A stretch of 38,749 nucleotides of DNA from Candidatus Methanoflorens crillii (lineage in GTDB: Archaea > Halobacteriota > Bog-38 > Methanoflorentales > Methanoflorentaceae): contig PMMR01000038.1 of the NCBI GenBank assembly GCA_003162175.1, positions 11,560 through 50,308 of the forward strand, in the 5' to 3' direction. Each line of letters opens with the position of its first letter. Within the stretch, counting starts at the first letter, position 1. Positions 7,071 to 11,797 of the stretch are shown here, one piece after another. The notes under the pieces were generated by a model, which saw only the letters and a list, made by a program, of their open reading frames with translations, ran no database searches and was not told the origin of the DNA. The position numbers and the translations under genes were made by a program.

Positions 7071-7117
7071 GAGAGGATAGATTTGAACCCGCGACACTGA
7101 AATAAGGAACTCAGTGG
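7071..7117 (-). other. possible tRNA 3'-end relic (long variable arm plus T-arm-like sequence)
   Basis: On the minus strand a perfect 6-bp hairpin CACTGA / TCAGTG (plus-strand 7095-7100 and 7111-7116) looks like a class II variable arm. It is followed by GTCGCGGGTTCAAATC and TATCCTCTC, which resembles a T-arm and the 3' acceptor strand. The T-stem has two mismatches, and no matching 5' half (GAGAGGA, D-arm, anticodon arm) is found upstream. If real, it is a degenerate 3' fragment of a Leu/Ser-type tRNA, the kind of trace left at integration sites. Confidence 0.35.
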
Positions 7118-7161: not shown

Positions 7162-7602
7162 ATGATGACAGACGATCGCGGAGGCTTGGCTAAGGCGTTG
7201 GGGGATACAATTGGTGCCGGTAGGGAGATCGTGAGTGTGAGGCGTTTGCTGCACCAGAGTAGCGAACTCATTGATAATATTGCCGAGCTAACCGACAAGC
7301 GCGCGAAACTGAACCCGCTTCCGGGCTCACTGCGAAAGCGGCATATGCGATGTGGTAAGCGAAGCTGCCGCTGCAGGACCGGTGCACTGCACGGCCCCTA
7401 CTACTATTTTGAGCCCTCGCGGCAGCACGGCAAGTGGCGGTACGTGTCGAGCGAACGTCTTGTTGAAGTGAAGAAGGGCATCGCTGACTGGAAAAAGCAG
7501 CAGGAAATCGACGAAATGCTGCAGACGTGTGCTTCACGGCTGGACGCCGTTCTCAAAACGCTACAGCGGGAAGTCGAATTGCTCGTGCAACCGGCGCAGT
7601 GA
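7162..7602 (+). CDS. DUF6788-like Cys-motif protein
   Basis: The 146-residue protein has a central HMRCGKRSCRCRTGALHGPY segment, the diagnostic block of the DUF6788 group (Cys-x4-Cys-x-Cys, then LHGPYYYF). It is flanked by predicted helical regions rich in Leu and Glu at both ends; the C-terminal helix looks like a coiled coil. Function is unknown. Members are scattered in archaeal and bacterial accessory DNA, so mobility is suspected rather than shown. Two consecutive ATG codons begin the frame. It sits just after a possible tRNA 3' relic and before the rearranged metal-transport locus. Confidence 0.75.
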   Translation: MMTDDRGGLAKALGDTIGAGREIVSVRRLLHQSSELIDNIAELTDKRAKLNPLPGSLRKRHMRCGKRSCRCRTGALHGPYYYFEPSRQHGKWRYVSSERLVEVKKGIADWKKQQEIDEMLQTCASRLDAVLKTLQREVELLVQPAQ

Positions 7603-7649
7603 GCTCTTCGCAAAGACGGCGCGGCAGCACTATTTTTGGGCAGAAGAAT

Positions 7650-7694
7650 TCCTACTCTAGTTAGCAGCAATCTATTTATATACATAGAGTAGGA
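7650..7694 (+). promoter_or_regulatory. TATA box bracketed by a perfect 10-bp inverted repeat (operator candidate)
   Basis: TCCTACTCTA at 7650-7659 is matched by its exact reverse complement TAGAGTAGGA at 7685-7694. Between them lies an archaeal TATA-like element (CTATTTATATACA, about 7672-7684). An arrangement with one half-site on each side of TATA suits a repressor that blocks TBP/TFB binding. The downstream genes are metal transporters, so a metal-responsive regulator is a reasonable but unproven candidate. Confidence 0.6.
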
Positions 7695-7753
7695 TAGCAC
7701 ACACTCAAGGTAGCGCCGTGCACGGCGGGTGCCGCACCGCGCAGGAATTGCCA

Positions 7754-8017
7754 ATGGCGCATATCCATTTGCCGGACGGGGTCTTTTCGATCCAATGGAT
7801 ACTCTTTTGGTGGCTGCTAGCGGCCACCCTCAATACGATGCCCATCATCGTCGCCCGCCGGCAGATCGTCACGGCCCAGCGGCTCACTATTGCGGCGATG
7901 GTAGCAGCAGCATCGTTTGCGATCTTTCAGGTAAACGTGCCGTTCGCCGGCGGAGACTTGGCTGACTACAATGCATATTCAGAAAGAGTAAGACAATGCG
8001 GAAAACTGGTTATGTAA
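7754..8017 (+). pseudogene. truncated cbiM (cobalt/nickel ECF transporter membrane subunit) remnant
   Basis: The ATG at 7754 opens a frame of 87 residues. The first 68 or so match the CbiM N-terminus: AHIHLPDGVFSIQWILFWW, a first membrane helix, a conserved linker helix, a second membrane helix and then FQVNVPFAGG. Intact CbiM continues with GTSGHL and more than 130 further residues. Here homology stops exactly after FAGG, and unrelated residues (DLADYNAYSERV...) lead to a stop inside the start of the substrate-binding-protein gene (22-bp overlap). The missing part is not present in other frames. I infer a recombination junction near 7960; the remnant may still act as a translated leader. Confidence 0.7.
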
Positions 8018-8931
8018 TTATTGCAACCGTTTTGGCTGCGTTAATTGTCTCGGGAGCCTTCGCAGGCATTTACCTCTCAAACCCTACAACTTCCAGCACT
8101 ACAAGTTCTAGTGGAGTGATACACGTAGTTGCCGCCGAAAATTTCTGGGGCAGTCTGATAACTCAGCTTGGCGGAACACGGGTTAGTGTGACAAGCATCG
8201 TTTCAGACCCCAATGCTGACCCTCACGAATACGAAAGCAATACCGCTAACGCCATAGCAATAGCAAATGCCCAGTTTGTAATTATTAACGGAGCCGGATA
8301 TGACACTTGGGCTCAACAGCTTATAGCCGCCAGCAGTACCCCACATCAAGTGGTCTTAAACGTGCAGGAACTCATTAATCAGACGGGTGATGCCAATCCT
8401 CACTTCTGGTACAGTCCTACTTATGTGAATGAAACAGTGAAGGCTATGTATCAGGATCTTGTTTCCATAGATCCCTCTCATGCTTCATACTATACACAGC
8501 AGTATGATGCGTTGAAAGCATCGCTAGCGGTATACAACGGGCGTATCGCTGAGATAAAGCAACAGTTTGGAGGCGTGAAAGTAGCATCAACAGAGGGCAT
8601 CTTCGGGTATCTGGCGAACGCCACTGGTCTTGACCTTGTTTCTCCTCCCGCATTCATGGAAGCTGTCTCAGAAGGAAACGATCCCCCAGCGCAGAGCATC
8701 GTGCAGTTCGATCAGCTTATTACGAATGGAACTGTTAAAGTGCTGGTCTACAATGCGCAAACGGTGACGCCACTCACTCAGAGCACTAAAGCATTGGCCT
8801 CTCAATATAACATTCCGATCGTTCCAGAGACGGAGACTATCCAACCGCCGGATGCCTCGTTCCAAGTCTGGATGAATGCGCAGTTAATCATTCTTCAGAA
8901 TGCACTTAACCAACAAGCCCTTGGGAAATAA
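7996..8931 (+). CDS. znuA: metal ABC transporter substrate-binding protein (ZnuA/TroA family)
   Basis: The 311-residue protein has a membrane-spanning N-terminus (residues 5-27) and then a Thr/Ser-rich linker, as in archaeal secreted and membrane-tethered binding proteins. The mature domain begins VVAAENFWGSLITQLGG. Cluster A-1 metal ligands are visible: His in DPHEYE, His in NPHFW, and Glu/Asp in the C-terminal lobe (VPETETIQPP). It lacks the His-rich loop of canonical ZnuA, so zinc versus manganese cannot be settled. It is encoded with its ATPase (4-bp spacing) and permease. The start lies within the cbiM remnant. Confidence 0.9.
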   Translation: MRKTGYVIIATVLAALIVSGAFAGIYLSNPTTSSTTSSSGVIHVVAAENFWGSLITQLGGTRVSVTSIVSDPNADPHEYESNTANAIAIANAQFVIINGAGYDTWAQQLIAASSTPHQVVLNVQELINQTGDANPHFWYSPTYVNETVKAMYQDLVSIDPSHASYYTQQYDALKASLAVYNGRIAEIKQQFGGVKVASTEGIFGYLANATGLDLVSPPAFMEAVSEGNDPPAQSIVQFDQLITNGTVKVLVYNAQTVTPLTQSTKALASQYNIPIVPETETIQPPDASFQVWMNAQLIILQNALNQQALGK

Positions 8932-8934
8932 CGA

Positions 8935-9732
8935 ATGAGTGCACAGCACGAGATCATCACGTCCAAGAATCTAGTGGCGGGCTACCCAGACAACATAGTT
9001 TGGCGAGACGCCACTTTCTCAATCGATCGCGGCGAGTTTGTAGCGGTTATCGGCCCTAACGGAGCGGGCAAGACAACTCTGTTTCGTTTGCTCCTTGGTT
9101 TGCAGCAACCTGTCAGCGGCGCGATCAAGATATTCGATGCAGCGCCCAAACGTGGCAATCCACAGATTAGTTACGTGCCTCAGCGTCACATATTCGACGA
9201 TGACACAAATGTTGAATCCCTTGAACTTGTGCGACTGGGATTCTCCGGCAAAAAATGGGGTCTGGGCCTGTTTTCCCACGAGGACCGCAAAGCTGCTCTT
9301 GATGTGCTGCAAGACGTTGGAGCTACAGACTTGGCTCATCGCTCGCTCGGCATATTGTCGGGCGGAGAACTGCAGAGGATATTTCTGGCAGAGGCGCTGG
9401 TAAGCAAACCCACTCTCCTTTTGCTCGATGAACCCTTGTCAAATCTTGACATGAGACGCGAAAGAGAATTGCTTCATCTTATAGATGGCGTAGTTCGATC
9501 GCGCAACGTGACTGCACTTTTGATAGCCCATAACATCAACCCTCTTTTGCCGTATCTCGATAAAGTGATTTACATCGCTAACGGTAAGGTGGCGACCGGG
9601 ACGCCGAAAGAGGTCCTGACATCAGCAAGTCTCTCGGCTTTGTTCGGGGTTCAAGTTGAGGTTCTTCGGGACTCTAGGGGCAACATTGCAGTTGTAGGCA
9701 TAGAAGATTACCACCGGTGTCAACCAGAATGA
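8935..9732 (+). CDS. znuC: metal ABC transporter ATP-binding protein
   Basis: The 265-residue ATPase has Walker A GPNGAGKTT at about residues 40-48, a Q-loop segment ISYVPQRHIF, the ABC signature LSGGELQR beginning near residue 141, Walker B LLLLDEPLSNLD and a switch His in LIAHNINPL. This is the family pattern of zinc/manganese uptake ATPases. The stop overlaps the permease start (ATGA), indicating one polycistronic message with the binding protein and permease. Confidence 0.93.
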   Translation: MSAQHEIITSKNLVAGYPDNIVWRDATFSIDRGEFVAVIGPNGAGKTTLFRLLLGLQQPVSGAIKIFDAAPKRGNPQISYVPQRHIFDDDTNVESLELVRLGFSGKKWGLGLFSHEDRKAALDVLQDVGATDLAHRSLGILSGGELQRIFLAEALVSKPTLLLLDEPLSNLDMRRERELLHLIDGVVRSRNVTALLIAHNINPLLPYLDKVIYIANGKVATGTPKEVLTSASLSALFGVQVEVLRDSRGNIAVVGIEDYHRCQPE

Positions 9733-10595
9733 CTTTCAGCATTAATCCATGGATCGATCTGCAACAGATGCTTCAGTACCAGTTCATGCAGCACGCCTTC
9801 GAGGCAGGAACGATAGTCGCAATCCTCGCGGGCATTGTTGGCTACTTCGTTGTGTTGCGCCGTTCTTCATTCGCAGCGCACGCGCTCTCCCACATCGGTT
9901 TCTCTGGGGCAGCGGCGGCCGTACTAATCGGGGTCAGCCCAATTTACGGTCTTCTCCTTTTCACAAGCGTGGGCGGACTTGGGATAGCCGCGCTTGGCCG
10001 ACGCGCCGCTAATCGCGACGCCGAAATCGGAATAGTTCTCGCATTCATGCTTGGCCTAGGTGTGTTGTTCCTCAGCCTCTACACCGGCTATGCAACTGAA
10101 GCGTACTCCATCTTGTTTGGAGAAATACTGGGCGTCAGTTTCAGCAATGTGCTTTTAACCTTCGTTGCCGGTGTGATAGTTCTGGTTCTGATCTCGCTTG
10201 TATACCGACCTCTCTTGTTTGCATCGCTGGATGAAGATGTGGCGGAAGCAAAGGGAATGCCCGTAGTCTTGCTCGGCATAGTATTCATGCTGCTAGTCGC
10301 GGTCGCAACGTCGTTTGCGGTTCAGGTAGTTGGTGTCCTCCTCATTTTCTCATTGATGGTCACGCCAGCTGCGACGGCTCAGCTATTGGCAAAACGACCG
10401 GGGCGAGTCATAATTATTTCTGTAGTCATTGCTCTGATAGCAACGTGGTTGGGGCTCTTTATTGCTTTTTTTGAGCCGTACCCAGTGAGCTTCTTTATAA
10501 CAACCATCGTCTTCGTCTTTTACTTGTTTGTTAGGTTCATCACTCCAAGAATCAGAAACTTCCTGTCTGGTTTCGGGGAAAGCACGATTAGTTAA
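9729..10595 (+). CDS. znuB: metal ABC transporter permease (ZnuB family)
   Basis: About 288 residues with seven to eight hydrophobic segments and the ABC-3 permease hallmarks: FVVLRRSSFAAHALSHIGFSG near the N-terminus, the coupling region LDEDVAEAKGMP, and LIFSLMVTPAATAQLL. I chose the ATG at 9729 because it overlaps the ATPase stop by 4 bp; a GTG at 9717 is in frame but less likely. It completes a three-gene metal-uptake operon. Confidence 0.93.
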   Translation: MTFSINPWIDLQQMLQYQFMQHAFEAGTIVAILAGIVGYFVVLRRSSFAAHALSHIGFSGAAAAVLIGVSPIYGLLLFTSVGGLGIAALGRRAANRDAEIGIVLAFMLGLGVLFLSLYTGYATEAYSILFGEILGVSFSNVLLTFVAGVIVLVLISLVYRPLLFASLDEDVAEAKGMPVVLLGIVFMLLVAVATSFAVQVVGVLLIFSLMVTPAATAQLLAKRPGRVIIISVVIALIATWLGLFIAFFEPYPVSFFITTIVFVFYLFVRFITPRIRNFLSGFGESTIS

Positions 10596-10631
10596 CGTGG
10601 TTGGGGCTCAACATTTTGACATTCGACTGAT

Positions 10632-11500
10632 CTATTCGTCGGATGCCCCTGTGGCCTCGAAGATGGCAAGTAATGTGTCGAGGGCATCGCTCCGTATCAC
10701 GAAGTTGTCCACAGTTCTGTATCGAGTGGTCATAAGCGTCGTTCGTATGCCCTCAAATGCTCGGGTTATGTAGTTCTCCCGAAAGAAAGCAATATCGAGA
10801 TCGCGTGTCCCGCTGCCGGCGACGACGAGTATCGTTTTATCACCGTAACAGTAACTTATGCCTCTCAGCAGTACGTACCCAGAAGAGGTTGGTAGGTGCA
10901 GCACATTGCCAAAGTGCTCTTGGTACTAGTCCTGAAGAAGGATAAGGTACCTTTCCAACGCAGCAGCGCCGCTTCTTCATCCGATTCAGCAAGAATCACG
11001 AAATCTGCGGGAAACCGATCTTCCGCCAATCGATTTGAATCGTATACCGCGTGAGAACTGCCCGCGTCCTAAGACGTTTGATATGGTAAGCAGCGGCGTT
11101 GCCGTCGCTGAGGCCGAGGCGCGCGTCAGCTTGTATTTGTAGTAGCTTTTGCCATCCGTGCTCTGTCGTGGGCTCAAAAAAGCTAACGCACGAGATCGAC
11201 GATCGCGCATTTGCCCCAGGACCACGCATGCAACGTGCTTTAAATAAGTGCAGCACCACTCACACTGATGCTCGCAAAGCGGATTGTTCTGTGTCTTGAC
11301 GTCAAATACGGAACGGCAACAGGGCACTCGTCGTGAAGGCACGACTTATGTGCCTTCAGTGATTGCTGTTTCCAAAAGATGTAGTACAGCCCACAGCAGT
11401 GCGGATTTATGAAAGTATTAGCCAAAATCATGCATTGGTCGACTCGAAACCAGTCAAAGAGCACGATCTGATCAAGATACTCTCGCGCGTGCTCGAGGGC
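10632..11500 (-). pseudogene. frameshifted Lrp/AsnC-like transcriptional regulator
   Basis: Reading right to left, protein-like sequence is spread over all three minus frames. About 11500-11300 holds an unassigned part with Cys/His pairs (FDWFRVDQCM, HDECPVAVPY). About 11310-11200 continues in another frame (NPLCEHQCEWCCTYLK). About 11190-11000 gives an HTH-like segment (KLLQIQADARLGLS, AAAYHIKRLRTRAVLTRYT). About 11000-10870 continues as ADFVILAESDEEAALLRW in a further frame. 10904-10632 reads like an Lrp RAM domain (YVLLRG, ILVVAGSG, TTLMTTRYRTVDNFV). At least three frame changes are needed, so it is read as a decayed regulator. The Lrp assignment is moderate, and the N-terminal third is unassigned. 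Confidence 0.5.
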
Positions 11501-11554
11501 GCCTAATTGTGAGGATAAAGCTTAATCGCCATAACGGCAAACGGAGGGTTTTAC

Positions 11555-11797
11555 GTGGAGTGGAAAGAACTGTGGGGCGTTGAGATTGAGAGTTCAAAAA
11601 GCGTCGCCCTGAGGGTCAGCGTCTCCCAAAGGGAGGACACTGCGACCAAGGTACTCAGCATTCGCAAATGGATCCGGCGCGGCACTGAAAGTTATCCGAC
11701 AAAAGGTGGTTTCGCGATACAGGTCACGCCTGACGCACTCGATCAGCTGACAAGAGCTTTAGAAGCCGCCAAAGACTACGTGAGCGAAAGCGAGTGA
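11555..11797 (+). CDS. PC4-like (transcriptional coactivator p15) domain protein
   Basis: The 80-residue protein has the PC4/Sub1 fold pattern: a short N-terminal segment, strands ALRVSVSQR and KVLSIRKWIRRG, then ESYPTKGGFAIQVTPDALDQL, where the P-T-x-x-G turn and final helix are the conserved feature. PC4-like proteins bind single-stranded DNA and affect transcription or repair. The start is GTG at 11555, supported by a GGAGG ribosome-binding site at about 11542-11547. It is the first of three plus-strand genes for probable nucleic-acid-associated proteins. Similarity is by pattern only; a profile search would confirm it. Confidence 0.65.
   Translation: MEWKELWGVEIESSKSVALRVSVSQREDTATKVLSIRKWIRRGTESYPTKGGFAIQVTPDALDQLTRALEAAKDYVSESE

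What the first reader, a model, noticed from the sequence alone, without database searches (positions are those of the whole stretch)
7650..10595. Metal-uptake locus rebuilt on a cbiM stump
The N-terminal ~68 residues of CbiM (ECF cobalt/nickel subunit) stop exactly after the FAGG motif and run into a complete Zn/Mn-type ABC operon, whose first start codon lies inside the remnant frame. The ABC operon thereby inherits the promoter and TATA-spanning repeat of the old cbiM gene, so regulation by one metal may now control transport of another. The sequence shows the junction; the regulatory capture is inference.
Basis: partly seen in the sequence, partly recalled or inferred. Interest (0 to 1): 0.6.

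Follow-up and report, generated by a model that had tools for sequence, protein, structure and literature searches.

The report
Metal importer swapped under old promoter
In a group of peat methane-producing archaea a nickel/cobalt importer operon was cut out and a manganese-type importer from other archaea put in its place, leaving both ends of the old operon and its promoter, so a foreign metal importer now seems to answer to the old importer's switch.

Summary
At 7754-7954 the window encodes the first 67 residues of CbiM; a complete metal ABC importer operon (znuA-C-B, 7996-10595) follows. Three other species of the genus (GTDB Bog-38, Methanoflorens) carry intact cbi genes at the same place: G003 the whole cbiM-N-Q-O between the same neighbours, G002 and G005 cbiQ-cbiO. 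Four species carry the replacement. The scar is two-sided: the last 39 codons of cbiO survive at 11387-11503, and a decayed copy of the host's own lrp-hisF region lies between importer and remnant. The stump evolves without protein constraint (dN/dS about 1.1; frameshifted in two relatives); znuABC is constrained (0.17-0.27). The importer is foreign, nested among Nitrososphaerota operons. A perfect 10-bp inverted repeat over the TATA box is unchanged (20/20 positions), while the DNA around it drifts to 44-70% invariant; in 295 genomes of the phylum it occurs only at this genus's cbiM promoters. No other TATA-like site lies near znuA. Corrections: the binding-protein site is His-His-Glu-Glu, pointing to Mn/Fe rather than Zn; that the metals differ, and which regulator acts, is unproven. 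It is a clear case of in-place operon displacement with promoter capture.

The parts
7162..7602 (+). DUF6788 gene, left flank shared with relatives that still have cbiMNQO
   Evidence: PF20586 E 3e-15; syntenic in G003, G001, G004, G006; a related DUF6788 gene also precedes the second repeat-bearing cbiM of G003 (C9)
7650..7659 (+). left arm TCCTACTCTA of the inverted repeat (probable operator)
   Evidence: 10/10 invariant in three scar genomes and intact G003
7675..7682 (+). TATA box TTTATATA inside the inverted repeat
   Evidence: best TATA match of the region; none close to znuA
7685..7694 (+). right arm TAGAGTAGGA of the inverted repeat
7754..7954 (+). cbiM stump, codons 1-67 (to FAGG)
   Evidence: PF01891 1-61; 75% identical to intact CbiM of G003; dN/dS about 1.1 against L036
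7955..8017 (+). fused tail of the stump frame; the DNA from here to 11386 is absent from the ancestral locus
   Evidence: junction alignment
7996..8931 (+). znuA-like substrate-binding protein (cluster A-I), metal ligands H77, H136, E200, E280 predicted
   Evidence: PF01297; ligand columns invariant wherever the column is covered in 51 aligned operons; AlphaFold model pLDDT 80.8 matches Mn and Zn binding proteins
8935..9732 (+). znuC-like ATPase
   Evidence: dN/dS 0.25
9717..10595 (+). znuB-like permease; the only PF00950 permease found in this genome
   Evidence: dN/dS 0.18
10621..11133 (-). decayed copy of the host's lrp/AsnC-like regulator gene, several frameshifts
   Evidence: 87% identical to G000:C29 lrp-like gene; intact copy 250 aa with HTH_24
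11134..11341 (+). copied lrp-hisF intergenic DNA and truncated 5' end of hisF
   Evidence: 77% over 225 bp to G000:C29; intact hisF there
11387..11506 (+). 3' remnant of cbiO (last 39 codons and stop): right scar
   Evidence: 85% identical to CbiO residues 257-295 of G003; also in G001
11555..11797 (+). 80-aa gene that directly follows cbiO in G003, right flank

Best explanation
An in-place operon displacement with promoter capture. Shown by the sequence: the ancestral locus was DUF6788 - inverted repeat with TATA - cbiM-cbiN-cbiQ-cbiO. In the common ancestor of four species the core, from cbiM codon 68 to about cbiO codon 256, was replaced by a foreign metal ABC importer operon plus a copied piece of the host's lrp-hisF region, leaving the start of cbiM and the end of cbiO as pseudogene scars. 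The importer proteins are under selection; the stump is not. Inferred: the importer is transcribed from the old cbiM promoter (start near 7705, leader through the stump), and the conserved inverted repeat is an operator bound by the repressor that used to control cbiMNQO, now controlling this importer. Inferred with less certainty: the metals differ (Ni/Co before, Mn/Fe now), so uptake of one metal may be switched by another.
For: Intact cbiM-N-Q-O between the same neighbours in G003, intact cbiQ-cbiO at the site in G002 and G005. Identical left junction in the window, L036/G001, G006 and L035/G004. cbiO remnant in the window and G001. Stump dN/dS 1.11 (67 codons, window-L036) against 0.17-0.27 for znuA, 0.25 znuC, 0.18 znuB and 0.07-0.15 for neighbouring genes; -22 and -1 nt frameshifts in G004/G006; His3, kept in the other genus cbiM copies whose starts were read, is Leu in L036. 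ZnuC+B tree: the scar clade (100/100) lies inside a mostly Nitrososphaerota clade (95/95); of 394 genomes of the phylum only 4 have a close permease. Inverted repeat arms 20/20 invariant in three scar genomes against 44% spacer, 61% leader, 70% stump, P about 4e-4 for that run. Exact repeat only at 5 sites in 295 phylum genomes, all upstream of cbiM or its stump; none on the backwards-read control. No TATA match of 6/8 or better in the last 120 nt before znuA in any scar genome.
Against: No expression or binding data. The regulator of the repeat is not identified. In G004 the repeat falls in a two-base scaffold gap, so its state there is unknown. The nearest znuABC relatives have a NikR-like gene beside znuA, so the metals may not differ. 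The repeat is also kept in front of a G003 C9 cbiM that has an in-frame stop, so conservation of the repeat is not by itself proof of use. The DUF6788-to-stump tract shows mosaic divergence between species, which weakens rate comparisons there.
Confidence: 0.78

Rival explanations
1. Like-for-like swap: the incoming ABC importer also carries nickel or cobalt, so the promoter still controls uptake of the same metal and nothing was rewired between metals.
For: Nitrososphaerota operons closest to this one (L037, L038, L039, L043, further off L040) and two Micrarchaeota ones carry a NikR-type gene (PF08753) upstream of znuA. Cluster A-I proteins can be polyspecific; the model also matches FpvC, solved with Ni, Mn and Fe.
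Against: Ligand set H77-H136-E200-E280 is of the Mn/Fe (PsaA/YfeA) pattern. In the NikR-like regulators of the four closest Nitrososphaerota operons one Ni ligand position (His89 of E. coli NikR, numbering from own knowledge) is Lys. Thermoplasmata relatives and the methanogen G055 have DtxR/MntR-type regulators instead.
Confidence: 0.25
2. The importer uses its own weak promoter inside or just after the stump; the cbiM promoter and repeat are relics.
For: The leader between TATA and znuA would be about 290 nt and runs through a decaying frame.
Against: No TATA match of 6/8 or better near znuA in any scar genome; repeat and TATA are kept while everything around them drifts; the znuABC homology with foreign relatives begins only inside znuA, so no foreign promoter came along recognisably.
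Confidence: 0.15
3. The 87-residue frame is a functional small protein (a mini CbiM or a leader peptide).
For: Open in the window and in L036; overlaps the znuA start (ATGA in the relatives).
Against: dN/dS about 1.1; frameshifts and an early stop in G004/G006/L035; metal-site His lost in L036.
Confidence: 0.04
4. Assembly or binning chimera.
For: All sources are metagenome-assembled.
Against: Same junction in four genomes, with flanking synteny on both sides in the window and G004.
Confidence: 0.01

Closest known systems
Gene displacement in situ / mosaic operons (Omelchenko et al. 2003, Genome Biol 4:R55; known to me and cited in PMC4455057, original not held)
   Same: A horizontally acquired set of genes takes the exact chromosomal place of resident genes, flanks unchanged.
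   Different: Here the incomer is not homologous to the resident (ABC importer with binding protein for an ECF importer), fragments of the old operon remain at both ends, and the old promoter with its repeat is kept.
Cluster A-I metal ABC importers (ZnuABC, MntABC, PsaABC, YfeABCD, AztABC)
   Same: Binding protein PF01297, permease PF00950, ATPase; His-His-carboxylate ligand set.
   Different: Fourth ligand is Glu rather than the Asp of YfeA; no NCBIfam equivalog cut-off is reached; no linked regulator in this locus.
CbiMNQO / NikMNQO energy-coupling-factor importers
   Same: The ancestral operon in G003 has CbiM, a small membrane protein in the CbiN position, CbiQ and CbiO.
   Different: In the window only the first 67 residues of CbiM and the last 39 of CbiO are left; the CbiM subfamily is below NCBIfam equivalog cut-offs.
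NikR-type nickel regulators
   Same: G000 has a clear NikR next to its full-length cbiM on C35; NikR-like genes adjoin the foreign relatives of this importer.
   Different: No NikR gene at this locus; binding of NikR to the TCCTACTCTA repeat is untested; the repeat is absent from the C35 cbiM upstream region.

Membership tests
Cluster A-I metal ABC importer operon | Binding protein PF01297, permease PF00950 and an ABC ATPase in one operon | tested here: met
Cluster A-I metal ABC importer operon | Four metal ligands in the cleft (His, His, Glu/His, Asp/Glu) | tested here: met
   H77, H136, E200, E280 are the only residues seen in those columns of 51 aligned operons, gaps apart; YfeA His76/His141/Glu207/Asp282
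Zinc-specific ZnuA | Third ligand His and/or a His/Asp-rich loop | tested here: not met
   third ligand position is Glu; no His-rich stretch in the protein; the loop criterion is quoted in PMC5387054
Manganese/iron importer | Transport or tight binding of Mn or Fe | not testable with these tools
   needs purified protein
CbiMNQO ECF importer at this locus | Full-length CbiM, CbiQ and CbiO | tested here: not met
   only CbiM 1-67 and CbiO 257-295 remain; cbiN and cbiQ are gone
In-place operon displacement | Outgroups carry the resident operon between the same flanks | tested here: met
   G003 whole operon; G002 and G005 cbiQ-cbiO
In-place operon displacement | Incoming genes have a phylogeny different from the host's | tested here: met
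   nested among Nitrososphaerota operons 95/95; rare in the host phylum
Promoter capture | Incoming genes transcribed from the resident promoter | tested here: inconclusive
   promoter and repeat conserved, no other TATA near znuA; no RNA data
NikR regulon member | NikR binds the inverted repeat in response to Ni | not testable with these tools
   NikR present at C35; binding needs an assay

The most novel reading that the evidence does not exclude
A manganese/iron importer has been placed under the nickel/cobalt-responsive operator of the importer it replaced, and the cross-metal wiring has been kept by selection since the common ancestor of four species: a natural rewiring of metal homeostasis by operon replacement.
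Probability: 0.4. Interest if true: 0.65.

Novelty: new variant of a known kind. Interest (0 to 1): 0.48.

Why it matters
Horizontally acquired operons must find a promoter and a regulator. Here ancestor, event, scars and retained operator can all be read in one genus, so one can ask whether inherited regulation is neutral, tolerated or useful. It also shows how a peat methanogen, which needs nickel and cobalt for methanogenesis, gained what looks like the only importer of this permease family in its genome, at the cost of one of its cbi operons.

Tried and rejected
Functional mini-CbiM or leader peptide: rejected by dN/dS and frameshifts. A broken cbiM whose other half is the C-terminal fragment on G000:C14: rejected, because that fragment is closer (83%) to the separate cbiM copy on G003:C18 and shares flanking DNA with it and with G001:C90. 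Codon and GC evidence for foreign origin: uninformative, znuABC GC3 0.47-0.57 against 0.51-0.62 for neighbours. Lrp fragment as a regulator that came with znuABC: no similar sequence beside the foreign znuABC operons; intact 82-85% copies elsewhere in the genus show it is host DNA. Same repeat in front of other cbiM copies: absent from G002 C103/C169, G003 C18, G001 C90, G004 C8 and own C35 upstream regions; G002 C122 could not be judged, only 39 nt upstream are on the contig. DUF6788 as cognate regulator: only a synteny hint, no paper found.

Full report
Setting. The window is G000:C22:11560-50308 of a 1.82 Mb, 69-contig genome, 81% complete. A paper equates the GTDB genus Bog-38 with Methanoflorens (PMC10805028). 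So the host is most likely a Methanoflorens peat methanogen; the name is inferred.

The observation. The stump at 7754-7954 matches CbiM (PF01891) from its first position, E 1.9e-9. It is followed by complete znuA, znuC and znuB genes. The frame of the stump overlaps the znuA start codon in the window; in L036 it ends in a TGA that overlaps the znuA ATG. The inverted repeat TCCTACTCTA-N25-TAGAGTAGGA with TTTATATA inside lies at 7650-7694.

The ancestral locus exists. G003 has, in the same order and between the same neighbours, the NMN adenylyltransferase gene, DUF6788, the repeat, cbiM (230 aa from its ATG), a 92-aa small membrane protein in the cbiN position, cbiQ (TIGR02454 above cut-off), cbiO, then the 80-aa and 141-aa genes. 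G005 and G002 have intact cbiQ-cbiO beside the same 141-aa gene. Homology of the window to G003 stops in cbiM after GGCGGAG and resumes in cbiO, window 11386.

The scar is two-sided and composite. Between znuB and the cbiO remnant (11387-11503, 85% identical to CbiO residues 257-295) lies a decayed antisense lrp-like gene, its upstream region and the start of hisF. This is a copy of the host's own lrp-hisF locus, still intact at G000:C29 and G003:C1, at 85-87% identity. G001 shares the cbiO remnant. L034/L035 (the public records behind G006/G004) keep more of hisF and have lost the remnant, with a junction at GAGGGCGC, which occurs in both hisF and cbiO. The right edge therefore went on eroding after the event.

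Selection. Nei-Gojobori estimates between the window and L036: stump 1.11 (67 codons), 0.70 over the 81 codons that include the fused tail; znuA 0.17, NMN adenylyltransferase 0.14, DUF6788 0.15. Between the window and L035: znuA 0.27, znuC 0.25, znuB 0.18. In L035/G004 and G006 the stump has lost 22 and 1 bp, and in L035 the frame from its start closes before znuA. The His at position 3 kept in the other genus cbiM copies whose starts were read is Leu in L036. The stump is a pseudogene; the importer is in use.

Origin. In a ZnuC+ZnuB tree of 51 operons the scar group is one clade (100/100) inside a ten-row group (95/95) that otherwise holds Nitrososphaerota operons and one unnamed archaeon. 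Best outside identity is Candidatus Nitrosotalea, 69/76/78% for A/C/B. In 394 genomes of the host phylum only G000, G004, G006 and one distant methanogen, G055, have a close permease (in G001 the contig ends before znuB). In G000, G004 and G006 it is the only PF00950 permease found; G002 and G003 have none.

Promoter. In the window, L036 and G006 all 20 arm positions are identical, while the spacer is 44%, the leader 61% and the stump 70% invariant; the chance of 20 invariant positions at the leader-plus-stump rate is about 4e-4 (7e-5 with G003). This takes the drift rate from nearby DNA, which has a mosaic history, so it is indicative only. The exact repeat occurs five times in 295 genomes of the phylum, always in front of cbiM or its stump, and the backwards control never occurs. 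The best TATA match lies inside the repeat; none of 6/8 or better lies in the last 120 nt before znuA in the scar genomes. A start near 7705 is an inference from archaeal TATA spacing (own knowledge).

Which metal. The four ligand columns are H, H, E, E wherever covered. YfeA, with His-His-Glu-Asp, binds Zn, Fe and Mn (PMC8411934), so the set favours Mn/Fe but does not exclude others. The structure model (pLDDT 80.8) matches Mn- and Zn-binding proteins equally. In foreign relatives the linked regulator is NikR-like in Nitrososphaerota and some Micrarchaeota, and DtxR/MntR-like in Thermoplasmata, the archaeon L041 and G055. In the four closest NikR-like proteins the position of His89 is Lys. 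The substrate is therefore open, with Mn/Fe preferred. The former operon's metal (Ni or Co) rests on family assignment only.

Mechanism, shown and inferred. Shown: replacement, scars, foreign importer, conservation pattern. Inferred: use of the old promoter, action of the repeat as operator, and a change of metal. The regulator is unknown; candidates are the genome's NikR (C35) and, more speculatively, the DUF6788 protein, whose cbi-linked form occurs only with repeat-bearing cbiM loci among the loci examined.

Verdict. The finding is real and better supported than its author could know. It is an unusually legible example of a known evolutionary process with a less usual twist: a non-homologous importer takes over the promoter.

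Noticed in passing
L003 (G000:C14:23659-23766) and L120:11495-11779: A C-terminal cbiM fragment fused to an unrelated N-terminal stretch, directly upstream of a membrane protein gene: the remains of another cbiM copy, matching cbiM at G003:C18 and G001:C90.
   Followed up: partly
L126:6818-7450 (G003:C9): Second repeat-bearing cbiM of the genus has an in-frame TAG at codon 19 and no cbiQ/cbiO close by; nonsense mutation or something else, not resolved.
   Followed up: partly
L123 (G003:C18), near 7085-7100: A third cbiM copy of G003 is frameshifted; this CbiM subfamily seems to be repeatedly lost in the genus.
   Followed up: no
window 7162-7954: DUF6788 and the stump show mosaic divergence: the window is unusually far from L036/L035 here, while L036/L035 are unusually close to G003, suggesting recombination between species.
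   Followed up: partly
L037:4557-4940, L043:4450-4833, L038, L039: NikR-like regulators next to Mn/Zn-type ABC importer operons in Nitrososphaerota, with Lys in place of one Ni ligand His: possibly a NikR branch with another metal.
   Followed up: partly
L173, L175, L176, L177: A second DUF6788 subfamily in the genus is always paired with an 89-aa gene of unknown function.
   Followed up: no
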